Source of the DNA: a virus
Length of the DNA stretch: 22,982 nt
Virus record (IMG/VR): IMGVR_UViG_3300025274_000072
Coordinates: 1-22,982 of that record
Direction: 5' to 3' (one strand)
A program made the position numbers and the translations under genes. This document shows, in pieces, positions 1 through 18,000 of this stretch. The notes under the pieces were generated by a model. The model was not told the DNA's origin, made no database searches, and saw only the letters and a program-made list of their open reading frames with translations. The stretch's first letter is position 1. The number at the start of each line of letters is the position of its first letter.

Positions 1-3000
1 AACCTGACGCGCGGGTTGCCATCATCATCCAACTCACGAACTGGTCTTTTGAGAAGGAGGTCGTCTAATTCATTAAATTGCGTAGACAGTCCCTCCCAAT
101 TAGGAGCGTAAACCTCGAATATTTCACTCCCATCATCCGCAAGCTCCGCGTGAATATAGCCAGTGTTCTCCCCCATAGAAGGTGGCAGCTTAACCTGCCC
201 ATTACTTACATGCCTAACCAGTTGAGCCATACCCTCGTGCGATATAACATAAGCGTCCCACACATAAAGCTCGCCCTTGTTATCGTAAGCAAAACGTAAC
301 TCGGCTCTCTTTCCCACACGCCCAACCAGTCCTTCAGCATGATCTCTCCTGTACTTTTGCGCCATCCTTGTTATCACATGTCGAGAGGGATTAATCCTTA
401 CCTCCTCAACCTCAGGCTCATAAGTACTGTGAGCGAAAGCTGCCGCTACTTCCTCACCAGTAAACCTTCTGCCGCGTGACCTCCCTACTTTCTCCTTATC
501 TATGGCACTCATCTCCTCGTCGATAAGAGGATCCCCGATCATGGTGTCTTCGATAGGAAGAAGCCCTATTTTCTGAGGCGCAAAGGGGCGCTCTTCAATA
601 GGCAGTGAGTCTGCCCGTTTGGCTGGGTCAATGCCGAGACGGTGGAAATTGAACCAAGCGTTGTTTCCCAGTGTCTCAGTAGCCAAAGCCCAGCGCGCCC
701 ACGGACTAGCCATCATACGCGCATGATTAACGTAGGCTGCCTTTCCCCCGAACTTACCCAACGAAAGAGGTGACATGGTGTGAGCGTAGTAGTCATGCAC
801 AGCCCGTAGCACATCATTGTACAACAAGAACGTGCCGTTCATATCGACACGCCCGCTCTGTTTTATGAGGGGATGGTTGGAAGAGAAGTCACTTTCGTCA
901 GTCTTGAGGATATAGAGATGATTGTTGTTCATAACATCATCTCTCATGGCTGCGCTGTTAGCGTATGGCTCCCCCTCTCCCTCGAACACCTCTACCTTGA
1001 CAGGCAGGGCGTCGAACTGACTAATCGACTCTCGCTGAAGTTCCGTATAGGCTCTTTTAACAGCAGGATTCCCGCTGTCATCATCCGGCATAGCGTCGTA
1101 GTTGTCGGCTATCCTCTCAAAGGATGTTCTTTCTTCTGGAGTGAGGGTGGTTTGTGGGACGGCAGTGGCAAAGGGCAGCCCACGCAGGAATTGAGCTATT
1201 CGGTGACTGGTTCTGTTTCCTTCGTGGTACGCCGGGAGACGAAGTGTGCCTGATATCTCTTGATACCCGTTTGTGGCGGCAAATCCACTACCGTAAGCCC
1301 AGAATCTTCTAATGCTTCTGTTAGCTCGTGATATGCTTTTTCCAAGGGATTGGCGGGCGCGGTTGGCTTGTTGTTGGAACTCTTGGATGGCGGCTGTGTC
1401 ATTAGGATCTCCCCAGTAGTATGCCTCTAAATATGTATCAGTTACCGTTAGGCCGGGCAAGCCTGATGACTTAATGACCTCATCGATCTTTGCCCGCGAT
1501 AATGGTTTAGGCAAAAGATAGCGAACTGCAATAGTGTTATACGACCCATCTGGATGAACGAACCCGGGAATGTTATTGTTGGGGTCACCATCCAAAACGT
1601 GGAGTTGTTCTTGATTGAAGTTGGTGGAGAACTGCTTGAGGGCAACCAGCGTATCCTGCCTGTCCGGTTCAGCAAAGCCCACCAGCAATCCAACTGATGG
1701 CTCACCCTCTCCCGCATAAACCCCCTGCGAGGGGAGTATCTGGAAAGTAGCTGTGGGAATACCGCTCAACAAGTAGGTCAGGGCATCAGTGGCAATGTCC
1801 TGCAACAGGTGAATGGCGTCTTGATTGCCCGTTTGGGCCTGCTCCTGTAAAGCAGCAAGGCCGGGGATCTCAGCATTAACGACCGACAGGTTGGAAGCTA
1901 TCTGATTGACAGGGACATCGTCTATGCTCTTGACCTCGCTGCGGTCGAGAACGTCCTGATCCCAAATAACGTAGTTATAAGTACGACTATCGCGTAACTC
2001 TATCGACCCCGGGTCCGCTGACCATTCTTCTAAAGTCTCTTTTAAATCGCGAGCATCTCTGAGTGTAGATCTTAGATTTTGGGTATAGCGTCTATTTGCC
2101 GCTCTTCCTTTAGGACCAAAAGCAGGTTCTGTCGCTAGAGCAAGAGACGTTTGCAACCGTTCCACCGAAGCCGTGGCCTGCTCTAGCGCAAGATCAACAT
2201 CCCCTGCGGTAGCACGCACAGCACGAGATGCTGCGAGATAGCCTAAATGGTACGGATTGTTTTCATCTATCTCTTCGCCATTATAAAAAACACCGATTGG
2301 TTTATCCCGACTCAACTGATCCCAATATCTAAGACCCGGAACACCTTCGTCAGCCAACGCCAAAGAAAGAACCTTCTTGGCCTCTCCCCGCTCTATGCCT
2401 TGTTTCTTCTCAATCGCCTCAGTAAGCGCGCGATAAATACCATTAACGGTTCTCTTGGGGTCCAACTGGTATGGTATGTACTTCTGAGGCACTCCGCTTA
2501 CCACATTGGTCAGAGCCTCCTGCACTTCTGGAGATTGCTTGTCGAATGCCAGATCAGCATCCATAAACAGCGCCATGTCGGCATCTGGAACGTCTATTTC
2601 ATAGAGGGTAGGCGCGTCTATGGCTGCCCTGACATCTGTACCAGCAGCAATCCATTGATCTATTAGTTGGAGTGCCTCAGAAGTAACTGCATCCGCTGCT
2701 GGTCCGATTTGATATACAAGCGAGTCTAACGATCCGCTTAAATAATCTCTCGCCAACTTTAATAACCGCTGTGGATCAGCACCTAGAGCTTTCTCTTCTT
2801 GTGGATTTCGATAACTACCAAAGAGATCGTTAAGCGCTGCTATTTTATGGCCCCGTTCATGGCTCACAATACCGGAGCTAAGGTCCACAGCACTGGGCCT
2901 AAGGTCTCCAGTCTCCCACCTACCCCGTAGAGATGGATGAGGAAGCGACCTACGCCCCCCTGCATACTCAAGAACCATTTGCAGAATGTAATTAGCATAC

Positions 3001-5456
3001 GTTAATGGAGAAACCAGTTCCTCTAATGACGGCATTTCCGAGGCAGGCACCACGGGATAACGTCCCCCAACAGGTCTGAGGGGGTTGGGAAGAACGCCGC
3101 CTATTGCACCTTTGTATTCATCACCAAGATGTTGGAGACCCGGCTCTTCCCACGTTTTTTGAGGAACACCATCTATAACAATCTCCCTGACAGCATCCTG
3201 ATTCCTCCACTCCTGCGCACGATCAGCCCTATAAGCCGCACCCGTATCCCGCACCTGCCCCGCATAATAACCCCACCCCTCCATAGTGGTGTCCTCTCCA
3301 GTACCCTGAAAAGCCAGATCTGGCTTGCCGAACACCCGATCCAAAGCCTTACCCCACGGCACGGGACTACCGCTGAACGCGCGCGCCTCTTTAACCCCCT
3401 CCTGCTTTTCCTTCTCAAGCTTCTTACTTAGACTTTCCTCCAGTTCCTCTGGGAAGTCCTCTGTTCGCGCCCCAGTCGGAATAAAGCCAGCAGGAGTGGG
3501 ATCAATGATGCGATCAAACACTTGCGCGGCGTTGTAGATTTTGGCGTCAGCAAGACCCCCCTTCAAATTCCTGAAGAAATTGAGGATACGCTGCCATATT
3601 GTCAGGGGGCGGCCCTTGAGAAAGTTCTGCCCGCTGGCGTGTCCCCTGAACAACTCGGCAGCCACCTCTTCAAGCTGCTCCGTCTCAGAGAGATCGGAGT
3701 AAGTCTCGCGCACCACCTCCATGACGCTCTTAACGGAGCCATCGTCTCTAAGCTGCCCCGTCCAATGAGGAACTTCATTGGCCGCTTCTGTTAAAGCTTT
3801 TATATCGGCAGCATCCAATGTCTTCATATCGACCAGCGCATGGATGGTCTCGTGGTCAAGCAGACCAGCCATGTAACGAGCCATCCATTTGGGATTCTTG
3901 AGAGTGGCTGGAGGTAAGCCATCAAGAGCAATCAAGATCGCTCGCTTAACAGCGGCCTCTTGAGGAATAAATATCGCCTCGTCCCCAACCTTCTGACCAT
4001 ATATGCCAGCAATGGTATCGGTAATTATCAGTGGTACCTTGTCTCCTAGATTAGAATACGAGCCAAAGCGACGTAGCAGGTTCTTGCGTATCTGACTGAG
4101 GATGGCGGGGGTGATATCGGGCTTGATGGTGGCAGTCCGAACAGTATCGGTAAGAGTGGAGATATCTGGAATAATCTGCTTCTCGGCAGGACCGATGTCC
4201 ACATGCACAGGATCAATAGCCGACGTAATGATCTCTTTGGTCTCTTCCAGAATAGCCGGTGCCTCTCCACCCACGTCTTCATCGACAGGACTGATACCCG
4301 GCAGGGCAGCAGGCGGCGTTGCGTCAATGGTTTCTTCTATGATGGGGGGTTCGGGGAGGCGGGTAGTCGGGATAGCTGCCGCAGTCTCATCCAGAATAGG
4401 AGGCTGTGGAATAGGCTCAAGAGGTATCGCTTCAGCCGTTTCTTCAAGGATCGCGGGCGGCGCGAGCGGCGGCCCCTCTTCTGCTACCGTTTCAAATTCT
4501 TCGGGGAGTCCTTCAGTAGGATCGGGTGGGGGTACTGGATCCGGTGTGGGGCGAGCAAAGGGGCCACCCACGCTACCAACAAACCCACCAGTAAGGCCAC
4601 CAATAGCAATGGCATTAGCAATATTCTCCACCCGCTGTGCCAACTGGATGTCTTCCGGGGAAGCGCCCGTAGCCTCGGTGTATTCACCCGTCGTCTCCTG
4701 AATGATCTGCTGCGCACCTTCGGTAAGCGCCTCTACAGTGAGGCCCTTCTTGCCGAACTGGAGCATCCGCTTGGCAACTGAGTGTGCGATTTTTTCTTTG
4801 GTTTTTTTCCTGAAGGGAGCAGTGAGGGCAGAGAGACCGGCCATATCCAAAGCGGCCATCGCCACACCCGGACCCAAAGCTATGCTAGCCGCCGTGTCAG
4901 GATCTACCTTTTCCTGCTCAACCAGATAATCATAAGTATCGCCATAGTTCTGGAGGAAAGATCCCGTACCAGCCCCAACACGCATCCCTACCCCTACGCC
5001 GATAGGGCCACCGGGTGCCCCTGCTATCCCACCAGCAACAGCACCAGCCAATGGCACACCTAAGGAAGCAACGCCTTGCCCTAATCCTTGACCGACGTAA
5101 TCCAGAAAAGTATCAAGGTCTTTGATTTGAGTGAGGGAGGGGACGCGAGCAACAAAAGCTTCTTTATCAGGCTCTGCTTCAAAGTCACTGACGATCTCAG
5201 AACCCCAGTCAGTGACTGTATCTGAGCCAAAGAAACGACCCAGCCCTTCGATGGCGCGCCCAGCCAAACGTGGGTTCTCTTGGGTAAGAGTGCCCCAAAA
5301 TGAGCCAGCGAATTGTTCACCAAACCCCGATTCGCTAGGCTGAGGAGGGGGAGCTTCGTAGGGGAATTGTTGATTGATGTACGCTAGAGCTTCATCTTGC
5401 GTAGCGTCATCAGGAAACGAGAACTGCTGCCCTTCAAATTCATAAAGCTGTGCCAT
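1..5456 (-). CDS. Giant polyvalent internal virion/ejection protein with zincin peptidase and ADP-ribosyltransferase-like regions (3' end outside window)
   Basis: An open frame runs from ATG at 5456 to the window edge with no stop I could find, giving 1818 visible residues. It starts MAQLYEFEGQQFSFPDD, an N-terminus style common in phage virion proteins. Residues about 115-170 are Gly/Ala-rich and hydrophobic, as in proteins that enter membranes during DNA ejection. Residues about 333-419 are a Pro/Glu repeat linker. HETIH lies at 535-539 in DHETIHALVDM, followed by EEVAAELF at 596-603, the pattern of a zincin metallopeptidase. GTGED (718-722), GWGYY (727-731), YEIDVPD (952-958), VPGLRYWD (1039-1046) and YNYVIWD (1160-1166) match, in order, the landmarks of ADP-ribosyltransferases of phage polyvalent proteins. 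A further conserved region holds RAVHDYYAH (1551-1559) and TETLGNNAW (1593-1601). It is the last of four core-type genes, in the position of T7 gene 16. No strong Shine-Dalgarno precedes the start. The gene is certain; the enzyme assignments are motif readings, and delivery into the host is inference. Confidence 0.85.
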   Translation of the reverse strand, partial: MAQLYEFEGQQFSFPDDATQDEALAYINQQFPYEAPPPQPSESGFGEQFAGSFWGTLTQENPRLAGRAIEGLGRFFGSDTVTDWGSEIVSDFEAEPDKEAFVARVPSLTQIKDLDTFLDYVGQGLGQGVASLGVPLAGAVAGGIAGAPGGPIGVGVGMRVGAGTGSFLQNYGDTYDYLVEQEKVDPDTAASIALGPGVAMAALDMAGLSALTAPFRKKTKEKIAHSVAKRMLQFGKKGLTVEALTEGAQQIIQETTGEYTEATGASPEDIQLAQRVENIANAIAIGGLTGGFVGSVGGPFARPTPDPVPPPDPTEGLPEEFETVAEEGPPLAPPAILEETAEAIPLEPIPQPPILDETAAAIPTTRLPEPPIIEETIDATPPAALPGISPVDEDVGGEAPAILEETKEIITSAIDPVHVDIGPAEKQIIPDISTLTDTVRTATIKPDITPAILSQIRKNLLRRFGSYSNLGDKVPLIITDTIAGIYGQKVGDEAIFIPQEAAVKRAILIALDGLPPATLKNPKWMARYMAGLLDHETIHALVDMKTLDAADIKALTEAANEVPHWTGQLRDDGSVKSVMEVVRETYSDLSETEQLEEVAAELFRGHASGQNFLKGRPLTIWQRILNFFRNLKGGLADAKIYNAAQVFDRIIDPTPAGFIPTGARTEDFPEELEESLSKKLEKEKQEGVKEARAFSGSPVPWGKALDRVFGKPDLAFQGTGEDTTMEGWGYYAGQVRDTGAAYRADRAQEWRNQDAVREIVIDGVPQKTWEEPGLQHLGDEYKGAIGGVLPNPLRPVGGRYPVVPASEMPSLEELVSPLTYANYILQMVLEYAGGRRSLPHPSLRGRWETGDLRPSAVDLSSGIVSHERGHKIAALNDLFGSYRNPQEEKALGADPQRLLKLARDYLSGSLDSLVYQIGPAADAVTSEALQLIDQWIAAGTDVRAAIDAPTLYEIDVPDADMALFMDADLAFDKQSPEVQEALTNVVSGVPQKYIPYQLDPKRTVNGIYRALTEAIEKKQGIERGEAKKVLSLALADEGVPGLRYWDQLSRDKPIGVFYNGEEIDENNPYHLGYLAASRAVRATAGDVDLALEQATASVERLQTSLALATEPAFGPKGRAANRRYTQNLRSTLRDARDLKETLEEWSADPGSIELRDSRTYNYVIWDQDVLDRSEVKSIDDVPVNQIASNLSVVNAEIPGLAALQEQAQTGNQDAIHLLQDIATDALTYLLSGIPTATFQILPSQGVYAGEGEPSVGLLVGFAEPDRQDTLVALKQFSTNFNQEQLHVLDGDPNNNIPGFVHPDGSYNTIAVRYLLPKPLSRAKIDEVIKSSGLPGLTVTDTYLEAYYWGDPNDTAAIQEFQQQANRARQSLGKSISRANRSIRRFWAYGSGFAATNGYQEISGTLRLPAYHEGNRTSHRIAQFLRGLPFATAVPQTTLTPEERTSFERIADNYDAMPDDDSGNPAVKRAYTELQRESISQFDALPVKVEVFEGEGEPYANSAAMRDDVMNNNHLYILKTDESDFSSNHPLIKQSGRVDMNGTFLLYNDVLRAVHDYYAHTMSPLSLGKFGGKAAYVNHARMMASPWARWALATETLGNNAWFNFHRLGIDPAKRADSLPIEERPFAPQKIGLLPIEDTMIGDPLIDEEMSAIDKEKVGRSRGRRFTGEEVAAAFAHSTYEPEVEEVRINPSRHVITRMAQKYRRDHAEGLVGRVGKRAELRFAYDNKGELYVWDAYVISHEGMAQLVRHVSNGQVKLPPSMGENTGYIHAELADDGSEIFEVYAPNWEGLSTQFNELDDLLLKRPVRELDDDGNPRVR
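4200..4460 (-). repeat. In-frame 54-bp-period repeat encoding an 18-residue Pro/Glu linker unit
   Basis: Within the giant protein, the unit (I/L)-L/I-(E/D)-ET-x-x-A-x-P recurs: ILEETAEAIP from residue 336, ILDETAAAIP from 354, IIEETIDATP from 372 and ILEETKEIIT from 402. The first three copies are exactly 18 residues (54 bases) apart; the fourth follows a 12-residue insert. The units separate the hydrophobic N-terminal region from the zincin region and probably form an extended flexible linker. Confidence 0.8.
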
Positions 5457-5473
5457 TCAGCAACTCATCACAT

Positions 5474-7948
5474 CTAGAATGGATAGACTTGTCGTGGCGC
5501 GGCAACAATGTCGCCACTGTTAGGATCACGAATAGTCGTGTGAACACCTGCTGCCGTCTGTGGAGCGACACCAGTAGCCGCTCTGATTTGTTCTAGTTCC
5601 TTTTTATATTCCTTTAATAGCTCTTTCTTCACCTTATCAGGATCATCTCCATACAGATCCTTTAGCCTACGTTCAACCCGTTTTCCTGCGAGGCTCCGTA
5701 CCCACTGATGATAAGTTTGAAGGGAAGCCTTTGATGCAGCATAAGGAGATTGAGCACTGCCAGCGCCCCAAGCCTTTCTTATTGCTTCTCTTGCCCCGGG
5801 GAGGGGGTTACCGGGTTTACCATCGACATCCTCAAACCACCTTTTCCAATGAGGACTTTCCTTGTGGCTTGCTAATATATCTTCTTCAAATCTCTGATAG
5901 GCGTCTGGTTTTCTCTTAAGAGCCGCCGCCTGTAATTCCAATGTAGCCCGTGCCAAGTCCTCTTTAGCACCCGCCGCTCTGGAGGCAGCTAATCCCTTCA
6001 TGCCCTCCAAGCCACCTCGTCCCAATGAACCAAGGGCAGTTGCTCCGGGCAGTTGCGCTGCCGCCGCCGTCCCAAATCCAGCGCGCGCTAAAAATTCCCA
6101 TAGATTCTGTTGGTCTCTTTCTTTTTGGCCCGCCAAGAGAGCACTCGCAGCAGAGGGTATTCCCGCAGCATCATCAACAGTAGCGTCATCAAGTGCACCC
6201 GGCTTCCCAGCAGCCATATTCCTGAGAGCACCCTGCCTCCAACTTCCCGGCCCCCCGAAAGCAACGGTCCTCGCATAAGCTTCACCCATATCAGGAGGAG
6301 CAAAACCCGGCGGAGTAGATGCCGCTACTAACGGCCTCTCACTCTGACTCAGAGCTAACTGCAAGTTAGGTGGATCAGGAATAGGATCAGCAATTTTATA
6401 ACCCCCGACAAAGGGCAATCCCCCAACTTTCTCAGCATAAATCCTCTTAAATGCTTCTTTATCCGCAGCACGTTGCTGCTCCATGTTTTTTCTGTATATC
6501 ACATCGTTAATCGGGGCTGCTTCAGAAAAACGACCAGTCTGAATACCTGCAAGCTCTGGGACTAGAGGCTGTACTGTTGATGGCGGAGCATCAGGCGAAC
6601 CAGAAAGCACAGTCTCTTCCTTGAAGCGTTCAGGAACCGGCAGCCCAAGCCGCCCCACTAACCGCCTACCCGCGCCCCCTAAATCAATTGCGCCTTGTAG
6701 CACTTTTTCACCTATGCCACCCGCCTGACCTATGCTTGTGCCAGATGCTGCTACCTGTGGCAGTCCACCTGTAGCTCCAGTTGTAGCTCCAGACATGAAC
6801 TGCGGCGGAAGCCATGTCCCAGATAAGGGAACTGCTTCCTCAATTCGATTTAACCAATCCACGGCCATCAGCGTTTCATCAGGTGACACAATAGGTTGTT
6901 CAGCAAGCTGTACTGGAGGCTGTGCTGTAGGCACCGCAGAAATAGCAGCCTCTTCTTCTGTTAGCGGTTTATCCCCGGCAGTAAAGAAAACATTCCCGCC
7001 AATATCCACCTTATCAGGTGTCAAGGGCGTTGTGAGGTTGCCTTGAGAATCATAGAAATCTTTAAGACTCTTGCTAATAGTCCCTCGTTTGGCAGTTAAG
7101 GTGGGGTTCTCAAAATTGAGCGAGCCACCAACAGGATTCGCCGCATTGAACGACCGCCCATCAAAGAGCGCCCCCGACACGAAGTATCTCGTCCAGCCGC
7201 TTGCTGGTAAAAGCTTGTCTACATCATGTCCTGCCTTCCCCACTGGCTCAAATTGTTGTTTTGCTTCAAGAACTTCCTTAACACTATCCCCCCATTTGCC
7301 ATCTCTGAGACGATTTATAATTACTGCCGTTACTGCAAATATGCCCTTTACATCATCCCCAGTTTCCTGATCAACAACCCTCGCAATTCTGTCTTTATCT
7401 TCATCAGTTAGGCTCTCAATCACCTCCTCAATAGACTTAACCCTACCTCCCTTAGCCATCCTCACAACACCACCTTGCTCCATCATCATGGGGGGAACAG
7501 CCTGACGGGCCATTGGTGGAGGCACTGCTCTGGCAAGAGCCTGCATCTGAGGAGGAACACCCGGTGACATCTGCCGTTGGGGTAGCGCCCTGATACCCTG
7601 CTGGGCTTGCGGGGGCATACGTCCCTGCATCATCTGAGGAGGAGGCCCCTGCATCATTTGAGGTGGAGGACGGCCCTGCATCATCTGAGGTGGACGGCCC
7701 TGCATCATAGCCTGCGGCCCCATTAGAGGACGGGGCTGCTGTGGTGATGCGCCACTAATAACATCATCAGCAACCGTAGTCTCCGCTTCCTCTACATCAG
7801 CCCTATAGGCGTCTTCCATACGCTTACGGCGATCCAACTCACTAATGATTAAATATGTATCAACAGCCCCGGGGTTCTGTACTTGCTGTAGCAAAACTTC
7901 CTTAGAAAGACCCTTCAGAATCTCTGTTATCTGTAAGATATTGGTCAT
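5474..7948 (-). CDS. Internal virion protein with SleB-type cell-wall hydrolase domain
   Basis: An 824-residue protein. The chosen start MTNILQITEILKGLSKEVL lies four bases after the stop of the preceding gene; the frame stays open further upstream, but that part overlaps the 360-aa gene and looks like shadow sequence. Residues 1-60 are a helical, charged conserved N-terminus. Residues 81-114 are a Met/Gln/Pro repeat. GGVVRMAKGG sits at 159-168. Residues about 186-325 resemble SleB/hydrolase_2 lytic transglycosylases: ARVVDQETGDD with candidate catalytic Glu195, then FAVTAVIINRLRDGKWG, QFEPVG, a SFNAANPVGG loop and VFFTAGD. The rest is Pro/Ala-rich with a charged helical C-terminus. It lies between the 360-aa core protein and the giant protein, as T7 gene 15 lies between 14 and 16. 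The likely role is local peptidoglycan opening during genome entry. T7 carries its transglycosylase on gp16 instead. The domain call is motif-based; a free endolysin role is less likely given the length. Confidence 0.88.
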   Translation of the reverse strand: MTNILQITEILKGLSKEVLLQQVQNPGAVDTYLIISELDRRKRMEDAYRADVEEAETTVADDVISGASPQQPRPLMGPQAMMQGRPPQMMQGRPPPQMMQGPPPQMMQGRMPPQAQQGIRALPQRQMSPGVPPQMQALARAVPPPMARQAVPPMMMEQGGVVRMAKGGRVKSIEEVIESLTDEDKDRIARVVDQETGDDVKGIFAVTAVIINRLRDGKWGDSVKEVLEAKQQFEPVGKAGHDVDKLLPASGWTRYFVSGALFDGRSFNAANPVGGSLNFENPTLTAKRGTISKSLKDFYDSQGNLTTPLTPDKVDIGGNVFFTAGDKPLTEEEAAISAVPTAQPPVQLAEQPIVSPDETLMAVDWLNRIEEAVPLSGTWLPPQFMSGATTGATGGLPQVAASGTSIGQAGGIGEKVLQGAIDLGGAGRRLVGRLGLPVPERFKEETVLSGSPDAPPSTVQPLVPELAGIQTGRFSEAAPINDVIYRKNMEQQRAADKEAFKRIYAEKVGGLPFVGGYKIADPIPDPPNLQLALSQSERPLVAASTPPGFAPPDMGEAYARTVAFGGPGSWRQGALRNMAAGKPGALDDATVDDAAGIPSAASALLAGQKERDQQNLWEFLARAGFGTAAAAQLPGATALGSLGRGGLEGMKGLAASRAAGAKEDLARATLELQAAALKRKPDAYQRFEEDILASHKESPHWKRWFEDVDGKPGNPLPGAREAIRKAWGAGSAQSPYAASKASLQTYHQWVRSLAGKRVERRLKDLYGDDPDKVKKELLKEYKKELEQIRAATGVAPQTAAGVHTTIRDPNSGDIVAAPRQVYPF
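7607..7708 (-). repeat. Tandem MMQGRPPPQ coding repeat
   Basis: Residues 81-114 of the SleB-containing protein are four tandem copies of an 8-9 residue unit: MMQGRPPQ, MMQGRPPPQ, MMQGPPPQ and MMQGRMPPQ. On the plus strand this appears as repeated ctgcatcat motifs about 24-27 bases apart. The repeat is strictly in frame and lies just before the catalytic domain, so it probably forms a flexible, sticky linker. It may vary in copy number by slippage. Confidence 0.85.
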
Positions 7949-7952
7949 AGCG

Positions 7953-9035
7953 CTATCCAGTAAGGGTTTTGTAAGCACCAAGAGCACCAAGGCCAGCACC
8001 AGCCAACTGACCCGTAAATGATCCCGGTGCTTGGTATTGGTAAACCTCGGACTGAGGTGTAACGGGCACTCCCTGTAATAGGCCAGCCAAGAACTGAAGC
8101 TGCCTACGCTCAAAGTCCCGCTGATTAAGGAAGTCCTGATAGGCCAAATCAAGGTTGGCCTGATCCATTTTCTGATAAGCAGCCCCCACTCCCTGCAACG
8201 CCCCAGCTTGAGAAAGCTGTTGCTGTAATATTTGAGGGTCCATTCCAGCGGCGGCAGCCGCAGCCTGTAATCCATACTGCGCCTCCTGCAACCTCTCTGC
8301 TCCCCCAAGTTGAGCAGCCTGTACGCGAGCAGCACGATCCCGCTGGAACTGATCCATTGCCTGCTGTTGAGCTAAACGAAATCCCTCCGAGCGTTGACGG
8401 CTTTCAAGATCGCCCATACGCTCCTCGAATTGACCGCGTGCCAATGATTCTTCCACGGCAGCACGGCTTCCCGTGCGCGTTCCACGCCCCACACGGGCAG
8501 CTTCCCTTTGCTGGGCCTGTAACCCAAACTGCGTTTCAGCACTCCTCCGCTGCCCACCAAGAACATCCTCCAAATAGGGATCAAAATAGTCCTTATAATC
8601 ATAAGATGGCCTGTATTCCCCTATAAGCCCGCTGTAGCCCTGTGCTTGAAATGGGCGTGGTCCGAACCCGGCAGCAGGAGAAGGCCCCTCAGCACCCCCT
8701 ACAGGAGCCTGAGGAGGCGCCCCCACCTCACCAGCAGGGGGTGGGGGAGCATACGGACGGTTAAGAATATTGGAGTAATAGTCCTGCGCAGCGTACATTC
8801 CCTGAGGAGCGGTTGCGCCTGCCTGTGTCTGCAACCCAAATCCTAGGCTCTGCTCCGGTGCAAATGGGGCAATGCGTGGTCCCGGGTAACCCAAATAGGG
8901 CTGATCGGTAACCGTTTCGCCTCGCGTTAAAAGACGCTCGTAGTAAGGCTGTGCGTATTCGGGAAGACTAGTCTGTGTAACCGTGCTCTTAGTGGGCGTA
9001 GGGTTGACACCCCCGCCACCTCCACCTTTACTCAT
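7953..9035 (-). CDS. Internal virion (core) protein, T7 gp14-like position
   Basis: A 360-residue protein with a six-Gly run at residues 4-9. A conserved block follows (SLPEYAQPYYERLLTRGE at 23-40, then Pro/Gly-rich sequence to QSLGF at 62-66), of the kind found in marine podophage internal proteins. Residues about 98-125 are Pro/Ala/Gly-rich. Residues about 160-310 are Gln/Ala/Arg-rich and probably helical or coiled-coil, and the C-terminus is a small Gly/Ala hydrophobic tail. A strong Shine-Dalgarno at 9038-9046 supports the start, and the first 8 bases overlap the end of the GNAT-like gene. Its place after a 137-aa GNAT-like gene and before two larger core proteins corresponds to T7 gene 14 (196 aa in T7). 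I see no enzymatic motif. The role is inferred from context and composition. Confidence 0.87.
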   Translation of the reverse strand: MSKGGGGGGVNPTPTKSTVTQTSLPEYAQPYYERLLTRGETVTDQPYLGYPGPRIAPFAPEQSLGFGLQTQAGATAPQGMYAAQDYYSNILNRPYAPPPPAGEVGAPPQAPVGGAEGPSPAAGFGPRPFQAQGYSGLIGEYRPSYDYKDYFDPYLEDVLGGQRRSAETQFGLQAQQREAARVGRGTRTGSRAAVEESLARGQFEERMGDLESRQRSEGFRLAQQQAMDQFQRDRAARVQAAQLGGAERLQEAQYGLQAAAAAAGMDPQILQQQLSQAGALQGVGAAYQKMDQANLDLAYQDFLNQRDFERRQLQFLAGLLQGVPVTPQSEVYQYQAPGSFTGQLAGAGLGALGAYKTLTG

Positions 9036-9441
9036 AGCCTTTCTCCGTAATAAAGAACGTCGCGTTCCATCCGATGTCTCTCAATGCGCGAACCCATCCC
9101 CTGCGTCCCGTCAGTTCAATGCCTGCGCAACCATGATCCATACCCCACCTTTGCAGCATCTCATCAAGATCCCCCATCCATTCCATTAAACGGGTGCCAC
9201 CCAGAAACTGGCCCGTCAGCATTCTCTTGCGCGGGTACTGCGTGAATGTGGTGGTACATGTTGCGATAATCTCGTCCTCATCCAACACCACCCACAGGTG
9301 GCTCTCTTGTGTGACTACCAAATGGTACACATCCTCAAGAGTGAACCTTCCTAAGGACTGCTCCACAGCAGGCTTGAGCAACGGAGCGACTTCATCCCAA
9401 CACTCCGCCACCCTATCGTAGGGGACAATGGAAACCTTCAC
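9028..9441 (-). CDS. GNAT-like virion-associated protein, T7 gp13-like position
   Basis: A 137-residue protein, almost the length of T7 internal virion protein gp13 (138 aa) and in the same position at the head of the core genes. It has the alpha/beta pattern of a GNAT acetyltransferase: an N-terminal helix, HLWVVLDEDEIIATCTTTF as paired strands, a positively charged turn YPRKRM, then FLGGTRLMEWMGDL, and GCAGIELTGRRGWVRALRDIGW as the final strand-helix element. The segment where acetyl-CoA normally binds (Q/R-x-x-G-x-G/A) is replaced by FLGGTRL, so catalysis is doubtful and a structural role is plausible. The start ATG overlaps the stop of the 704-aa gene by four bases (ATGA), implying coupled translation. 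The family resemblance is clear to me; activity is unknown. Confidence 0.85.
   Translation of the reverse strand: MKVSIVPYDRVAECWDEVAPLLKPAVEQSLGRFTLEDVYHLVVTQESHLWVVLDEDEIIATCTTTFTQYPRKRMLTGQFLGGTRLMEWMGDLDEMLQRWGMDHGCAGIELTGRRGWVRALRDIGWNATFFITEKGYE
9038..9046 (-). promoter_or_regulatory. Ribosome binding site for the 360-aa core protein
   Basis: GGAGAAAGG, read on the minus strand, lies two bases before the ATG at 9035; its GGAG core is seven bases before the ATG. It lies inside the 3' end of the GNAT-like gene and fixes the start that makes the 8-base overlap. Confidence 0.7.
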
Positions 9442-11562: not shown

Positions 11563-11857
11563 AACTTGTTGTAACCGTTACGGTTCCAATTGCACTAGCT
11601 GCCGAAACGGAACCTGAGTATCCTACATTAACAAGCACGATCTTCAATGTGCCACTGTCGTTAAAAACAGAACCTGTCGCCAACTGAAAGCCACTCGTGG
11701 GCAAGTCCGTCAGCACCAACGTAGTGCCGCGCAAGGCCCCCGGGTTGGCTACCTGTTGCACGAACGCATTAAGCGTCCTCACCAGATCATCGGCATATGC
11801 CCTCTCATACCCTTCTGGCGGGGAAGGGAAGACCGGCAGGCCGCCCTTGAAGTTCAT
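11561..11857 (-). CDS. Small conserved virion protein (98 aa)
   Basis: It starts MNFKGGLPVFPSPPEGY with an ATGA overlap on the stop of the nozzle-like gene. It has a helical N-terminal half (YADDLVRTLNAFVQQV), then NPGALRGTTLVLTDLPTSG and a beta-rich stretch with FNDSGTLKIVL, a pattern common in small proteins encoded beside tail genes of marine podophages. It ends ASAIGTVTVTTS, nearly the same C-terminus as the 117-aa protein at 22116-22469. No enzyme motif is visible. Its position directly after the nozzle gene suggests a tail decoration or assembly protein; the function is not known. Confidence 0.82.
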   Translation of the reverse strand: MNFKGGLPVFPSPPEGYERAYADDLVRTLNAFVQQVANPGALRGTTLVLTDLPTSGFQLATGSVFNDSGTLKIVLVNVGYSGSVSAASAIGTVTVTTS

Positions 11858-14154
11858 CTCCTGCCATCCGGCCTTATGTTAAGGCGCGGTACTCCCAGCC
11901 TCCATTGCACGCCAATCTCGGTGCTCGATACCCTGAGAGCAACGCCGCGCCCTCTAATGCGGACGTGCAACTGGTTGGTGAACTGCTCCACAGGGGTGGT
12001 AGCAGTACGGGTGGCCGTCTCATCCTGAGATTCATCGTAGGCAGCACCGGGATAGTTACGCGCCTTGATGGTGAACGTCGCCGTGGGGTCCATAGATGTC
12101 GACCCATCGAACGTGAGGTCAGGAAGGACGCGGTCCACGAAACTGAAGCTATCCCCCTGCCCTATATCAAACTGAGAGCTTTCAATATAAGAATCAATAG
12201 CGGAGCCATCGTCGTCATTCCCATTCTCGTGGTTATAAAGATAAGGCGAAGCAGTCGTCCCCGTTGCCTGAGGGTAGGTTCTGATGCCCCTGTCGATCCA
12301 CGCTGTTCTAGCTAACGACCCATAATACCACAGGTTTTCCCCATAGTTATAGACAACATACGAATCGTTTTCAGTCGCCGTGGACGACGGATAAAACCAT
12401 ATAACCTCCGTAAACTCTGAATTGACCCCCGCATAGATGGTCCGCAAGAGATTAGCATTAAGGTTGCCGAAGACCTTGAAGCGCACCGCACACGGGAGCG
12501 CCTGAACGCGCCCATCGTAACGATAGAAGGTATCCCTGCCCATCCAGAAGATGAGGTCGTCGACACTGGCTACGGCATTGGGACCAATAATCGTAATGGC
12601 CCCCGAAATCTGGGCCAGACCAAACGTATCGGGAGGTCCGAGAAACGTCATCGAATGAAGGGAGGTGTCAGTCCATATCAATATTTCTCTTTTGGTTTCA
12701 ACGGCCTTGACGAAAGTAGAACCCGATCCAAGAACCAAATCACCGGCAGTAGTGGTCTCGTCAATATCCCAATTAATCCTGCTGTCCTGATCGGACCAAC
12801 GGACAAGAAGGGGATCTTGAGCAGAAGAACCCACGGCATTGCAACCAAAAGCAATAATGTGGCCGTCCCTATCCGAGGTCAGTATCTGCTTGGCAACGGT
12901 GGGCACGTTGCTGGCGTCCGTCTCAGTCGCCAAATCAACAGCCGCAGTGAGCAGACCGTTGTCCCTTTCCCAGACATAAATAGCGCTATCCCTCACGTTA
13001 GCAAGAAGGTCTTCGCCATAGTTATCCTGCGACCACAGAGGTAGCTCAGTTCTCACGGCGATCTCCGCAGGATCTCCCCAGCCAATAAAGGCCCTCGCAT
13101 CCTGTACAGGTGCGGCATCGGCATGAGTAGCTCCCGTTGTCCCCCTAGTGCCCCGGGTTATTCCAGTGAGATCATTAGTCGAAACACCCGTATAAGTGAT
13201 CAGTTCATTATCTACGAGGATCACCCCGAGATAAGTAACAGCATCAGAAGCCGTGTGAGGAGCAGCAGTCGTACCAAAAGCGCCCCGAGTTAAGTCACTG
13301 AATACATTACCAGACAGGGTTTTGTAGCCGATAATCTCTGTGTTAATCGATACCGTTCCGGCTGCCGCAAAGCCTGTCGAGCTAGCCACTGTAAACGACG
13401 TGTCGGCATCCGTTATACCGTCACTCAAGGTGGTGCTACCCGCAGCAAAGTCAGTAGCGCTCGTCAGGGCAATATTCGACGTGGACGTTGGACTTGATAT
13501 CGCGCCGTTTAATGTGGTGGAAACAGCACCAGTAACAGCACCGCCCCACAAGCCAGCACTCCAACCAGTACCGCCAGCGGTCGAAGCAGGGCCAGTATTG
13601 ATCTGATACGTCGCTGTGAACGCATCTCCTCCCGAACCAGTTCCGGTCGAGGTTGCGGCACTCCCCACGGTAATGGTGTAAATATTGGCATCGGTAACAC
13701 TTGTTATCTGGTGCTCCGTGTTAAGGTCGGCAGCAAGGATTCCGTTGACCGCACTAAGTCCGGTAAACGTCACAAAGTCATTCTGTATAGCACCATGTCC
13801 TGAATCCGTAACCGTTACCGTCGTCTCCGTGTCAACTGTAGCCAACGCCGCTGCCGTCAATGACGCCGTCCGTCGAATAGGAGTAATGTCGTAAAACGAA
13901 ACACCCTCTTGAATATAGAGCTTGAGGTTCGTCCCCACCCCTAAGAAATCAGAGCCATCATTGGCAACCCAATTGTGCAAAGAACGGCACGCCCCTTGGA
14001 AGGTTGAAGAAGAAACCTTCTGCCAACCACCAAATTTTTCCGGCAGGCCGAAACGAAAGCGAACCATATCCCCATCAAACCACCCTCCCTCGTTGGCATA
14101 GGAAGTCGTCTCCGTCACGATACCGGGGCGGAGGGTGATGTTCTGCAAGGGCAT
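11854..14154 (-). CDS. Tail nozzle / DNA stabilisation-like protein with tandem insertion
   Basis: A 766-residue beta-rich protein. The start MPLQNITLRPGI at 14154 lies four bases after the previous stop; an upstream in-frame ATG would overlap that gene and adds poorly conserved residues. Residues 1-100 hold the conserved opening (GGWFDGDMVRFRFGLPEKFGGW, SLHNWV, then FLGVGTNLKLYI). Residues about 100-350 look like an inserted beta domain with a tandem duplication. From about 355 the pattern of a tail beta-propeller/nozzle protein returns: VRWSDQDSRINWD, REILIWTDTSLHSMTF, TIIGPNAVASVDDLIFWMG, DTFYRYDGRVQALP and YNYGENLWYYG. This pattern resembles the P22 gp10 and T7 gp12 tail proteins that close the portal channel. 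Its place just before the internal virion genes agrees with T7 order (12 then 13). The fold assignment is by pattern only. Confidence 0.85.
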   Translation of the reverse strand: MPLQNITLRPGIVTETTSYANEGGWFDGDMVRFRFGLPEKFGGWQKVSSSTFQGACRSLHNWVANDGSDFLGVGTNLKLYIQEGVSFYDITPIRRTASLTAAALATVDTETTVTVTDSGHGAIQNDFVTFTGLSAVNGILAADLNTEHQITSVTDANIYTITVGSAATSTGTGSGGDAFTATYQINTGPASTAGGTGWSAGLWGGAVTGAVSTTLNGAISSPTSTSNIALTSATDFAAGSTTLSDGITDADTSFTVASSTGFAAAGTVSINTEIIGYKTLSGNVFSDLTRGAFGTTAAPHTASDAVTYLGVILVDNELITYTGVSTNDLTGITRGTRGTTGATHADAAPVQDARAFIGWGDPAEIAVRTELPLWSQDNYGEDLLANVRDSAIYVWERDNGLLTAAVDLATETDASNVPTVAKQILTSDRDGHIIAFGCNAVGSSAQDPLLVRWSDQDSRINWDIDETTTAGDLVLGSGSTFVKAVETKREILIWTDTSLHSMTFLGPPDTFGLAQISGAITIIGPNAVASVDDLIFWMGRDTFYRYDGRVQALPCAVRFKVFGNLNANLLRTIYAGVNSEFTEVIWFYPSSTATENDSYVVYNYGENLWYYGSLARTAWIDRGIRTYPQATGTTASPYLYNHENGNDDDGSAIDSYIESSQFDIGQGDSFSFVDRVLPDLTFDGSTSMDPTATFTIKARNYPGAAYDESQDETATRTATTPVEQFTNQLHVRIRGRGVALRVSSTEIGVQWRLGVPRLNIRPDGRR
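13105..13362 (-). repeat. Tandem domain-level repeat inside the nozzle-like gene
   Basis: Two consecutive units of about 41-42 residues at 265-306 and 310-350 share the frame G(T/V)(V/I)x(I/V)(N/D)xE(I/L)IxY, then L/D-T-R/G and RG-x-x-GTT-x-A-x-H-x-A. Examples are DLTRGAFGTTAAPH and GITRGTRGTTGATH. The units form an insertion in the beta domain and probably arose by duplication; DNA similarity is modest, so the event is old. Confidence 0.75.
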
Positions 14155-14158
14155 TAAA

Positions 14159-14680
14159 TCAGTCCAGTGGATCGGGCCAGTCGTGCATGGGAGCGTTGCC
14201 GTCATCAGGCGCGACAAACATATTCTTCAGCCCAGTGACTGTCTTCTTTGCGGCAATGGCCTTGGTGATCTTCTTCTCCACCGCCCTCACCGCAGCACGA
14301 TATGTCGCCACGTCATCGGGGATCGCTTCCTCTGTCTCTGTCTGCCTAATGACGTACCAGTCAGTAGACTTCAATAAGCTCAGAGCACTCTGCGCTGTAC
14401 GCTCCGTGTGTTTTTTCCTCAACTCATCCATCGGCTTAGGCGTGACGTTGTCCCACACACGCACCACCTTCTCGGATTGGATGTCGTAGCGCTCTCCCCT
14501 GTAAGTGTAGAACTCGCTGTCTTGATGCTGGATCTCCAACGGGAAGACGCCGATGTTGGCAAGCTGGTGTTTGTCCCATGCACGGAAGATCGCCGCCGGG
14601 TGCTGTATCTCATCAATGGTGATGGCTTGAGCGCCATTGATGATTTTGATGACCTGATTACCCTTACGCACACACCACAT
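14159..14680 (-). CDS. Tail-fibre assembly-like / DUF4376-type protein
   Basis: A 173-residue soluble protein. The N-terminal part (KIINGAQAITIDEIQHPAAI, then LANIGVFPLEIQ) and central YTYRGERYDI read as a small beta domain. The C-terminal part, LKSTDWYVIRQTETEEAIPD followed by VATYRAAVRAVEKKI, is the helical hallmark of phage tail-fibre-assembly and DUF4376-like proteins, in which a TDWxVxR motif precedes an A-x-YR helix. It lies near the fibre genes, as such chaperones usually do. A Shine-Dalgarno GAGGTGA at 14684-14690 supports the start. Conserved Trp residues in the TDW and AWDKH segments are visible. It could be a minor tail component rather than a chaperone. Confidence 0.83.
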   Translation of the reverse strand: MWCVRKGNQVIKIINGAQAITIDEIQHPAAIFRAWDKHQLANIGVFPLEIQHQDSEFYTYRGERYDIQSEKVVRVWDNVTPKPMDELRKKHTERTAQSALSLLKSTDWYVIRQTETEEAIPDDVATYRAAVRAVEKKITKAIAAKKTVTGLKNMFVAPDDGNAPMHDWPDPLD

Positions 14681-15005: not shown

Positions 15006-18000
15006 CTACCTCGCTCTTGCCTGTGCAACTCCTGAACCTCCAAACGGATTTTCCGCAAAGGCAATGTAGATATAATCAGCAGTGTCTGTATTTTGGAATG
15101 TACTGCGGAGTTTGAATCCATTTGCTAAGAAATCCTGCGTTGCACCTGTATTTGTTCCATCAGTATCATCAACAACTAAAAAATCATCAAGTGGGTTAAA
15201 TGGATCTCTCTTATTATCTACTAAGGTATAACTACCAACAGCACTAAACTTTTTCTGAAACAAATAACTAGGACGAAACCCCGTACAGACAAACGGACCG
15301 TCCGCATCACCATTACCGACATAGCTTCCGAAAGAGGAATATCCTTCAACGGGAAACCACGCATAGAAGACATATTCTTCAACTAAATTAACAGCATTAT
15401 TATTTAAATTTTTTGCAAGAGTTATCGTTGTTGAAGATACTGCACTTATATACCCAGCATTTGGAGTTACTTCGGCACCATTATGATCTATTTGCAGGAT
15501 CTTATTAGCGGATAATGAAGTATGCCAAAGAGTCCACGAACTAGACCTCTCAAGAGGTTTCACTATAACCAATTCAGGGGTAACCCCAAGTCCGTGACCT
15601 ATCGTAGAAGAGACAGCGGCATTATCACCTGTATAAGTACCCATCGAAAATCCGGCAGCGGTATTTGCCCTGATCGTAGTCGTAATGGCACCATCCCCGT
15701 TACTGGTTTCCGCACCATCATTCGCCCATTGCCACAGAACATAACTTTCGGCAGACGTATTAACTGCATCCATGTTTCCTATCTGTACACCCTGCTGAAG
15801 GAATCGTTGTACAGAATTAGTATCGGTATCTTGACCGTCAGTAGTATTACTTTCTACATAATTATAAATTCCAGTTACCCTCGTCTGAAGGATATGATTA
15901 TCAGTAGCATCCCGGTTCTTGATCCAAGAGAAGCCGGTGATGCCAGCGGTGTTGGCTGGTAGGTTGTCCTGTTGGAAAGCTAAAAAATCTGTTGGTGGTG
16001 TATATCTGAAATACCCACCGGCAGTAGCATCTAGTGTCGTTGTCGCCCCATCGAAATAACGCCACTGACCGAAATTAAAAGTACAGGTATGACTAGCATT
16101 AAAAAGCAACTCTATAGCCCATTTCGATATATTCGGACCTCCGAATATTCCCGTTATGGCAGGGTTTGTGCCAGCACTAGGATCACCGCTACCCATCCAC
16201 GTATCATTTTTTGCAAACCACATATGTCCCGCATCTAAATCCATTGCGATTTGAAACACATCTCCAGATACATAACCCGTTCCGAAAGTTGTAAAGTCAC
16301 CCCTCACATTTTTTTGCCCTGTAGACCCTGATGTAGTACCACCAGCACTATCATAATTTCTGTATCCAAATGCATTTTCGCCATAAATACTATTATCCGC
16401 AATTAGATTGTTAAGATCAATAATTCCAAATGCCATTGTATTAGCGCCAACCACCATCGTATCTATTCCAATTTCAACATACCATTTTCCGGTAGAAGCA
16501 CCCATAAAAGCAGGGCCAGAAGGATTACCCGATGATTGCGTATATGTTAAGTTTCCCTGCGTTAATCCCGCTGCTAGAGGTTGTATCCATGATATGCCGG
16601 TACTATCCCAACCACCATCCATTACATTAAAGTTCTGTGACGGCGTGTCGTACATCTGGTTGCTGCCGTTGGTGCTGTCCAGATTAGTTTCGGCCCAATC
16701 ATTACCTTCACCGGAGGTATCATCACCTAAATTATTTTCAGAAGCATAGGCAAGGTAAGTGCCGTTGGTTCCAAAGGTTAGACCTGAAACATCCTTTGGT
16801 ATCCAACGACCTGTTGAAGTATCAGTCTCACCAAAGCTGGAAGCAGCGTAAGCCGTTCCATCAATAAAAACAGTTTCAGCTAAATATCCATCATAGGGTA
16901 TATCCCCCGCTGGTTCTCGTTGACCTATTCCGTGTTCAACATTGGTTTGTACGCCACCCTCAAAATTTAATGCTGGATTCGTATCCGTTGAAAAATTGGT
17001 AAGTTCCACCCCATCATAATATATCCGAACTCTGTCACCTGCTGTGGCATCGGTAGTATCCCATGTCAGCACGATATTGTGCCATGAACTTGTATCTAAA
17101 AATAATCGGTCTGTGGCGAGATAAGTAGTACCTCCAGCATTAAATTGAAGTGTATTAGCACTTCCAAATATAAGAACACCAGAATTAGCTGTGGTTGCAC
17201 CAGAAGCTGGTTGTGTCCCAAATATGTGTCCGTTAACATCAACTTTCCCTCGTTTTACCCAAGTTGAGAACGTCCACGTTTTTCTATCACTAGCATCAAA
17301 GGTCCGGCTTAAAAAATCACTGTCACCACTATCAAACCTACAAGAAGCACCAACAGCAAACGTATCGGTGAAGGGTATGAAGTTACCTACACGCTGACCA
17401 GCGCCGTTGCCTTCATAGAGTATGGGGAGGAACTGATCTGTGGGTTTGGTTATGGTTGGGGCTGCAAGGTTAGCCGTGCATATAGGAAGATGGTCTGTAG
17501 CTGGAGTATCGTCAAACCCAAATTGTCCGGCGTTAATATTCGATATTGTAGTGCCATTATTAGTAAAATAGAGAGTGTACGGCCCGGTGGCTAATGTCAT
17601 GCCAGAATCAGTGAATATATTTGAACCATCGAAAGATCCTGCAATAGTTCCGTTATCAAGATCTATATCCACCGCCACCCGCTGTCCAGCAGTTACTACC
17701 GTCAAACTGCCACTTTGCTCTACACCTCCCAACTGCGTCATTCCATCACCTGAAGAAGGCTTCATGAACCAGTTCCAGTAGCCACTAGCACTTGGATTGA
17801 AGGTACTGAGAGTGGGTGTTAGTCCAAGTCTATGATGACCACTACCACCAAGAGTTGTCATAACAAATTCTATGTGCCATTTCCCAGTAAGTATAGGTGT
17901 TGTAGTAAGCGGTATAAAAACATCGCCACTGGCTATAGCTATTACTACTTTAGTATTCCCCTCACTCCAAGTCACTTCAGAAGCATAACCACCAGGAGCG

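What the first reader, a model, noticed from the sequence alone, without database searches (positions are those of the whole stretch)
1..5456. Ejection-position giant protein combining a zincin peptidase, an ADP-ribosyltransferase-like region and another conserved domain
The last core-type gene (at least 1818 residues) has a hydrophobic Gly-rich N-terminus like an ejected protein. It also has HETIH (535-539) with EEVAAELF (596-603), a dispersed ART-like motif series (718-1166) and RAVHDYYAH/TETLGNNAW (1551-1601). Known polyvalent proteins of phages and conjugative elements join such domains and are thought to be injected to act on host targets. Here they sit on the protein in the T7 gp16 position, so one molecule could form the ejection channel and carry effector enzymes. 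Seen: the motifs and their order. Inferred: activity and delivery.
Basis: partly seen in the sequence, partly recalled or inferred. Interest (0 to 1): 0.85.

Follow-up and report, generated by a model that had tools for sequence, protein, structure and literature searches.

The report
Giant phage ejection-position polyvalent protein
A phage known from environmental DNA carries a 4069-residue protein, at the place where related phages encode the protein they eject with their DNA, that strings together an intact-looking protease, a probably dead ADP-ribosylating domain, an unnamed enzyme-like domain and a methyltransferase: a known kind of giant 'polyvalent' phage protein with some unusual features.

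Summary
The window is a whole IMG/VR fragment that cuts the gene; L003 gives the full 4069-residue protein. It ends in LPD38 (Pfam E 1.9e-32), a phage-type polyvalent-protein domain, and is followed by holin and lysozyme. The zincin is strongly supported by sequence: H535, E536, H539, E596 and E597 are the same in 42 of 42 non-redundant LPD38 proteins in which a profile finds it. The ART region is a real relative of ART-PolyVal/Tox-ART-HYD2, but the strand-1 histidine is Ser here (His in 39 of 42 rows), so it is probably not a working transferase of the known kind. The third domain (PHROG 3170) is widespread, with a conserved H-D-x-x-x-H, H, E set; this protein departs from it at three near-invariant sites. 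In Pelagibacter phage HTVC034P a 1229-residue LPD38 protein occupies the T7 gp16 slot; Burkholderia phage JC1 gp69 (LPD38, 4515 aa, before the lysis genes) was found in virions by mass spectrometry. Best reading: a packaged, ejected polyvalent protein with exchangeable cargo and, in this clade, a constant protease. Channel formation and protease action are inferred. New variant of a known kind; interest 0.5.

The parts
3..5456 (-). Giant ORF, residues 1-1818 of a 4069-residue protein; the rest lies beyond the contig end (L003:10001-22210)
   Evidence: 100% identical over 1818 residues
4569..5264 (-). N-terminal virion-protein-like region, residues 65-296
   Evidence: phrog_6958 'virion structural protein' E 3.2e-19; phrog_10089 DarB-like 217-329 E 1e-5
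3387..4166 (-). Zincin-type region, residues 431-690; HETIH 3840-3854, EEVAAELF 3648-3671
   Evidence: H,E,H,E,E 42 of 42 nr80 rows; 11 of 11 rows
1914..3395 (-). Degenerate ADP-ribosyltransferase domain, residues 688-1181, with a long insert at about 745-950
   Evidence: S695 in place of His
1299..1553 (-). Ferredoxin-like alpha/beta stretch, residues 1302-1386 (model only, common fold)
   Evidence: AF2 model, block pLDDT 74-88; VIA-align best row Z 6.0, 74 aligned, rmsd 2.5
477..1175 (-). PHROG 3170-type domain (D3), residues 1428-1660, RAVHDYYAH / TETLGNNAW
5474..7948 (-). Preceding gene, about 824 aa, SleB-type cell wall hydrolase domain, gp15 position
   Evidence: Pfam Hydrolase_2 E 7.9e-10; phrog_15649 endolysin E 3.6e-7; start codon chosen by eye
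7953..9035 (-). 360-aa ejection-type protein, gp14 position
   Evidence: phrog_4287 'DNA ejection protein' E 2.1e-7
9028..9441 (-). 137-aa protein in the slot that holds an acetyltransferase in HTVC034P and JC1
   Evidence: phrog_7642 unknown function E 4.3e-6; slot; GNAT-like by eye only
11854..14217 (-). Tail/head-closure-type virion protein
   Evidence: phrog_3287 E 1.1e-63; relatives annotated 'stabilization protein' in several phage records

Best explanation
It is a phage polyvalent protein built on an LPD38-type ejection protein. Shown by sequence: a virion-protein-like N-terminus and a C-terminal LPD38 block (about 3320-4060) bracket roughly 3000 residues of cargo, in the slot that follows ejection-type genes. 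Shown: the cargo holds a zincin signature with all metal and catalytic residues, an ART domain that lacks the strand-1 histidine, domain D3 and a methyltransferase-like stretch. Inferred: the protein is made late, packaged in the head, threaded out with or ahead of the DNA with the 360-aa and about 824-aa neighbours (the latter carrying the cell wall hydrolase), and its LPD38 end serves packaging or ejection. Inferred, less certain: in the cell the zincin cuts the chain or a host protein and frees the cargo; the ART remnant binds rather than transfers.
For: LPD38 E 1.9e-32 at 3771-3951; Iyer et al. [quoted passage not shown] Position: tail gene, 98 aa, 704 aa, 137 aa, ejection-type 360 aa, hydrolase-bearing ~824 aa, giant, then holin and lysozyme. 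In HTVC034P the order is tail tubular A, B, acetyltransferase, internal virion protein B, 580 aa, LPD38 protein of 1229 aa, tail fibre; two of these hit 'internal virion protein' PHROGs and the LPD38 protein aligns with window-protein residues 3318-4024. JC1 gp69 (LPD38 at 4195-4401) gave 51 unique peptides from purified virions (PMC9144972 tables); an LPD38-end profile made without it recognises it at E 2.5e-17 among 9 JC1 proteins. Zincin: found in 40 of 43 closed LPD38 ORFs, key residues 42 of 42. ART: H 39, Q 2, S 1 of 42 rows, Tyr 44 of 44; hhalign of a 13-row ART alignment to an ART-PolyVal set E 1.9e-5 against 0.79 and 0.069 for two unrelated alignments.
Against: No direct evidence that this phage packages the protein. 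The LPD38 block has no usable match in the PDB by sequence, so its role is positional. Only one weakly hydrophobic 19-residue window in 4069 residues, whereas gp16-like homologues are said to share putative C-terminal membrane helices (PMC8954989, passages). The zincin profile hits 0 of 7 LPD38 proteins of named phages, so the zincin is not needed for ejection in general. The AF2 model of the zincin region shows helices but no sheet. JC1's neighbours share no detectable single-sequence similarity with ours and hit other PHROGs.
Confidence: 0.72

Rival explanations
1. One reading: every cargo domain including the ART is an active host-directed enzyme delivered by an ejection-channel protein.
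For: Zincin residues complete; ART Tyr and Asp kept; D3 H, D, H, H, E kept; the ART part is still constrained between L005 and L008 (dN/dS 0.34).
Against: The strand-1 His is absent in the window protein and in L005/L008, by two different replacements, while 39 of 42 rows keep it; L005/L008 also have one residue more before the Asp and lack the Ser-Arg after it. D3 has G1571 and N1598 where 36 of 37 rows have E and Q.
Confidence: 0.12
2. The zincin is a head-maturation or self-processing protease acting before or during packaging, and the other cargo is largely structural or decaying.
For: Near-constant presence in this clade (40 of 43) with invariant residues, while cargo varies; Iyer et al. 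cite P1 DdrB processing before packaging (PMC5512222 section 8); ART degenerate.
Against: N4 vRNAP, also with a zincin, is packaged unprocessed (same section). JC1 gp69 does not match this zincin profile. D3 core residues outside the seeding patterns, H1559 and E1594, stay 37 of 37, which is not decay.
Confidence: 0.2
3. A DarB-like DNA-protection (antirestriction) protein, with the methyltransferase as the working part.
For: Weak N-terminal hit to the DarB-like PHROG 10089 (E 1e-5); JC1 gp69, in a like position, is called DarB-like.
Against: The hit covers only 217-329; the methyltransferase hits a tRNA methyltransferase PHROG (E 3.5e-16) and is missing in the L005 and L008 lineages; no helicase family among the Pfam matches.
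Confidence: 0.08

Closest known systems
Burkholderia phage JC1 gp69 / Bcep22 gp75 (DarB-like, LPD38)
   Same: Size (4515 aa for JC1), LPD38 near the C-terminus, end of the virion module with two small reverse-strand genes before lysis, acetyltransferase and virion proteins upstream; in virions by MS
   Different: Cargo is lytic-transglycosylase-like, methylase-helicase and LPD3 (tables); none of the window's zincin, ART, D3 or methyltransferase profiles hit it; neighbours hit other PHROGs
Pelagibacter phage HTVC034P gp44
   Same: LPD38 end block, gp16 slot
   Different: 1229 aa, none of the cargo profiles used here hits it
Polyvalent-protein zincin-like metallopeptidases (Iyer et al. 2017)
   Same: HExxH plus Glu on a later helix, inside a multidomain phage protein
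   Different: No Pfam model matched; the later Glu is an EE pair; sheet not seen in the model
ART-PolyVal (PF18760) / Tox-ART-HYD2
   Same: Motif order and Tyr, Asp; profile similarity of the wider family
   Different: Strand-1 His missing; large insert; the Pfam model hits neither the window protein nor the near relatives scanned
Planktothrix phage Pag-Yong1 'large polyvalent protein'
   Same: D3 and LPD38 in one protein
   Different: 2772 aa; no match to the zincin or ART profiles, though it has two other HExxH

Membership tests
Phage polyvalent proteins (PMC5512222) | Several unrelated domain types in one polypeptide | tested here: met
Phage polyvalent proteins (PMC5512222) | A domain of the polyvalent set (LPD38) | tested here: met
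   Pfam LPD38 113 bits, cut-off 27
Phage polyvalent proteins (PMC5512222) | Encoded beside late virion genes | tested here: met
Phage polyvalent proteins (PMC5512222) | Packaged and injected | not testable with these tools
   Only the homologue JC1 gp69 is reported in virions
Zincin-like metallopeptidase | HExxH on a helix | tested here: met
   42 of 42 rows; helix in the model
Zincin-like metallopeptidase | Glu on a second C-terminal helix | tested here: met
   E596, E597 42 of 42; helix 591-607 in the model
Zincin-like metallopeptidase | Three-stranded sheet core | tested here: inconclusive
   Model shows no sheet; 11 zincin rows only
ART (Tox-ART-HYD2 / ART-PolyVal) | His in strand 1 | tested here: not met
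   S695; H in 39 of 42 rows
ART (Tox-ART-HYD2 / ART-PolyVal) | Tyr in strand 2 | tested here: met
   Y731, 44 of 44
ART (Tox-ART-HYD2 / ART-PolyVal) | Asp in strand 5 | tested here: inconclusive
   D1046 follows a model strand and is D in 39 of 41 rows; its identity with the strand-5 Asp is inferred
ART (Tox-ART-HYD2 / ART-PolyVal) | ART fold | tested here: inconclusive
   Two diphtheria-toxin chains Z 7.0 and 6.8 over 132-134 residues, model 688-1181, but helix matches tie; Foldseek none at E 0.001
T7 gp16-type ejection protein | Last and largest of the ejection genes in the order gp13-14-15-16 | tested here: met
   By slot: own order; LPD38 protein in that slot in HTVC034P
T7 gp16-type ejection protein | C-terminal membrane segments | tested here: inconclusive
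   One KD window at 1.6 or more, at residue 129 only
T7 gp16-type ejection protein | Sequence or fold similarity to gp16 | tested here: inconclusive
   No gp16 chain among matches; block not folded here

The most novel reading that the evidence does not exclude
An ejected giant protein in which a once-active ART has become a non-catalytic NAD+/ADP-ribose- or target-binding module (a delivered decoy or sensor), next to D3, an unnamed phage domain with an H-D-x-x-x-H, H, E site on helices behind a small sheet, possibly a second, divergent metallohydrolase fold, all mounted on an exchangeable-cargo ejection protein whose one near-constant enzyme in this clade is a zincin that releases the cargo.
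Probability: 0.22. Interest if true: 0.75.

Novelty: new variant of a known kind. Interest (0 to 1): 0.5.

Why it matters
It ties polyvalent proteins to the gp16 slot through a graded series (1229 aa with no cargo recognised by these profiles in HTVC034P, about 2770 aa in L005/L008, 4069 aa here), which makes 'ejection protein as cargo carrier' testable in a cultured pelagiphage. It gives natural His-bearing and His-less ART neighbours inside one gene family, and points to D3, a widespread domain with an enzyme-like site that no Pfam model clearly covers in the 34 rows scanned.

Tried and rejected
Pfam, NCBIfam and PDB sequence searches with the window protein or alignments of its regions gave nothing usable for zincin, ART or D3. 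Foldseek against the PDB found no match at E 0.001 for either model. In BFVD the second model matched 19 viral proteins at E 0.001 or better, two of them named polyvalent or ART-PolyVal-like. A MATCAP (carboxypeptidase) hit for D3 is in 1 of 34 rows only (E 2.7e-5; 25.3 bits under the 27 cut-off), so I do not use it. Zincin against D3 profiles: no similarity. ART alignments against the single L140 sequence were weak (E 0.06 and 0.042). The ART-like stretch of L140 itself (a different stretch from the Pfam best hit) gave no Pfam family at 0.01. Single-sequence comparison of JC1 with the window's neighbours found nothing at 0.01: kinship with JC1 rests on order and on the LPD38 profile. The second HExxH (HERGH 866-870) lies in an ART insert that L005/L008 lack and is treated as chance. 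The 4y6w/4y6c hits of the LPD38 profile are TPR/kinesin-light-chain repeat proteins and were not pursued. HTVC023P and DSL-LC04, hit by the tail gene, were listed but their largest proteins were not analysed.

Full report
What is there. The window is a complete IMG/VR record of 22982 bases. Its first ORF on the minus strand, 5456 to 3, is 1818 residues and open at the contig end. A scan of viral contigs gave 12 loci; two of them (L002, L003) hold the gene at full length, 100% identical in protein over the window's 1818 residues. In L003, part of a 61126-base contig, it is 4069 aa. All later residue numbers refer to that protein. The gene is followed by a GTA-type holin (Pfam E 5.7e-6) and a phage lysozyme (E 7.3e-37).

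Domain map. Residues 65-296 match phrog_6958, virion structural protein (E 3.2e-19), and 217-329 match phrog_10089, DarB-like (E 1e-5). Zincin-type region 431-690; ART region 688-1181; ferredoxin-like stretch 1302-1386; D3 1428-1660; methyltransferase-like stretch 2328-2559 (phrog_4752, E 3.5e-16; Pfam Methyltransf_31 only E 0.13; the one phage record hit is a Maribacter phage tRNA methyltransferase at 37.5%); LPD38 3771-3951 (E 1.9e-32).

Zincin. With three rows the scan kept 7 loci of 78 pattern stretches; a later profile found more. In 11 aligned rows H, E, H and the EE pair are invariant. Among LPD38 ORFs in which the profile finds this region, 55 unique sequences reduce to 42 at 80% identity: H535, E536, H539, E596, E597 are 42 of 42; 54 of 55 have HExxH, the exception L114 not followed up. 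The scan patterns do not contain the motif, but the profile does, so rows that lost it are less likely to be counted. Of 105 unique LPD38 ORFs, 43 are closed at both ends; 40 of these 43 have the zincin, and the set includes near-duplicates (L002/L003, L007/L008, L194/L195). Seven LPD38 proteins of named phages do not match the zincin profile; three of the seven have some other HExxH. So the protease is near-constant in this environmental clade, not in all LPD38 proteins. The AF2 model puts both motifs on helices but shows no sheet, on 11 zincin rows; the fold is therefore unproven.

ART. Many relatives read H-G-T-P-H and G-W-G-W-Y where the window has S-G-S-P-V and G-W-G-Y-Y. The family scan: 77 pattern stretches, 49 relatives. 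One of its two patterns admits only H, Q or S at the site in question, so the count below leans to these three letters; the other pattern does not touch the site. Of 49 unique domains, 44 at 90% identity: position 695 is His in 39, Gln in 2, Ser in 1 (the window) of 42 rows with a letter; Tyr 731, in neither pattern, is 44 of 44; Asp 1046, in neither, is 39 of 41. The next relative in the same gene family, L069/L184 (one contig), keeps His. A separate set of domains grown from the L140 stretch that Pfam calls ART-PolyVal (E 1.1e-38; set A8, 11 rows) matches the wider 13-row ART alignment by hhalign at E 1.9e-5, probability 77.7, over 84 columns of the first half, with the H-G and G-x-Y motifs in register; the narrower alignment A1 reaches only 0.0068, single-sequence comparisons 0.06 and 0.042; two unrelated alignments give 0.79 and 0.069. 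The structure comparison of residues 430-1200 lists diphtheria toxin chains at Z 7.0 (132 aligned, rmsd 5.1) and 6.8 (134 aligned, rmsd 5.3), the only two of the 50 rows listed that span the whole domain, but long-helix matches tie with them and Foldseek alone found nothing significant. The first aligned pair is model 259 with chain 14; if ungapped, Ser695 would fall on chain residue 21, which I recall, from no call, as that toxin's NAD-site histidine. Iyer et al. describe the ARTs of polyvalent proteins as H (strand 1), Y (strand 2), D (strand 5) (PMC5512222 section 9). By that test the window protein descends from the family but lacks a defining residue, so I file it as a degenerate relative, not as an active ART. 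The ART part of L005 against L008 has dN/dS 0.34, against 0.12 for the zincin and 0.14 for D3, so it is constrained, more loosely. dS also differs by part (0.81 ART, 0.18 zincin), so recombination confounds these ratios.

D3. tblastn of the whole window protein against 50,697 phage records hits 200 records; the 40 rows listed all fall on this region. The scan: 172 pattern stretches, 148 relatives, 80 kept. In 37 non-redundant rows (of 61 unique) H1554, D1555, H1559, H1578, E1594, N1547, D1548, R1551, Y1556, Y1557 and others are 37 of 37. Caution: the scan's patterns were RAVHDYY and a stretch with H1578, so R1551, H1554, D1555, the two Tyr and H1578 are partly conserved by construction; H1559, E1594, N1547 and D1548 are outside both. 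Pag-Yong1, found by tblastn without patterns, reads RAVHDYFGH, which supports H, D and H. The window alone has L1566 (F in 36), G1571 (E in 36) and N1598 (Q in 36). The model is confident there (block pLDDT mostly 89-98) and reads helix-helix-strand-helix-strand-strand-short strand-helix(HDxxxH)-helix(H)-helix(E); the likeness to a zincin order is my reading of that string and was not tested on coordinates. Of nine stretches, eight were ORFs that carry D3; of these eight, three also hold ART-PolyVal and GNAT (L139), GGDEF (L119) or a phage RNA polymerase (L121), one has the sub-threshold MATCAP hit (L128) and four have no Pfam match at 0.01. L140, another D3 ORF, holds ART-PolyVal stretches. 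For the 34-row alignment gives E-values only; its best family is MATCAP, 1 row.

Position and packaging. Reading the minus strand: a tail/closure-type protein (phrog_3287, E 1.1e-63), a 98-aa and a 704-aa protein, a 137-aa protein, a 360-aa protein (phrog_4287, DNA ejection protein, E 2.1e-7), an about 824-aa protein with Hydrolase_2 (E 7.9e-10), then the giant. Pelagibacter phage HTVC034P has tail tubular A and B, acetyltransferase, internal virion protein B, a 580-aa protein, a 1229-aa LPD38 protein and a tail fibre in that order; its acetyltransferase and IVP-B hit internal virion protein PHROGs and its LPD38 protein aligns with window-protein residues 3318-4024 (E 2.1e-34). A review of ejection proteins (PMC8954989, passages) gives 609-1337 aa for gp16-like proteins and notes that the peptidoglycan hydrolase can move to the gp15 homologue, as the position of Hydrolase_2 suggests here. 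Burkholderia phage JC1 gp69, 4515 aa, LPD38 at 4195-4401, at the end of the virion module, was second on the list of proteins found in CsCl-purified virions, 51 unique peptides (PMC9144972, passages and tables). JC1's neighbouring genes hit different PHROGs from ours and single-sequence comparison is blank, so the kinship is at the LPD38 end and in gene order.

Cargo exchange. L005, L006, L007 and L008 (two lineages) align before 2194 and after 3076 but not between, where the methyltransferase lies; L209 carries a similar stretch in another LPD38 protein. L005 against L008: N-terminus 33% identical, zincin 96%, ART 65%, 1661-2031 28%, 2032-2194 97%, LPD38 87%; the window's N-terminus is nearer L008 (54%) than L005 (29%). 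The gene is a mosaic with a steady end block.

How it most likely works. Made late, packaged, ejected with or before DNA, cargo delivered, the zincin cutting either the chain or a host protein. Packaging rests on position and one homologue; cutting, timing and targets are inferred. Iyer et al. discuss both pre-packaging and post-injection processing for such zincins (PMC5512222 section 8).

What is known already. The class, zincins and ARTs in phage proteins of this class, LPD38 as a phage-type domain, and ARTs as early effectors are in PMC5512222 (abstract, sections 8, 9, 29, 32 and passages read) and PMC9503650 (passages). In this library I found no description of an ART lacking its His in a polyvalent protein or of the LPD38-gp16-slot link by searches; the three papers listed by one search were not opened, of the 25 of one search (20 listed) two were read in passages, the one listed by 117 was not opened. 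D3 was not searched by name, and most subscription papers are not held.

Verdict. Observation confirmed, interpretation partly supported, new variant of a known kind.

Noticed in passing
window 15006-18821: 1271-aa gene, tail-fibre-like by eye (repeated lectin-like stretches), lies in a low-GC block (42-45% against 49-57% around it), suggesting a recently acquired receptor-binding module.
   Followed up: no
L003:16841-17740: Methyltransferase cassette present in the 4069-aa form and absent from the L005 and L008 lineages; a similar stretch in L209; nearest phage record a Maribacter phage tRNA methyltransferase.
   Followed up: partly
window 2847-2861: Second HExxH (HERGH, residues 866-870) inside the ART insert that L005 and L008 lack; probably chance.
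   Followed up: partly
L005 and L008, N-terminal about 330 residues: N-terminal part swapped between lineages: 33% identical while the adjacent linker is 91%.
   Followed up: partly
L121, L119, L139, L140: D3 occurs in ORFs beside a phage RNA polymerase, GGDEF, GNAT and ART-PolyVal domains: it behaves like an uncatalogued polyvalent-protein domain.
   Followed up: partly
window 11854-14217: The tail/closure-type protein carries a stretch matching a tail-fibre PHROG (phrog_11439, residues 262-328).
   Followed up: no
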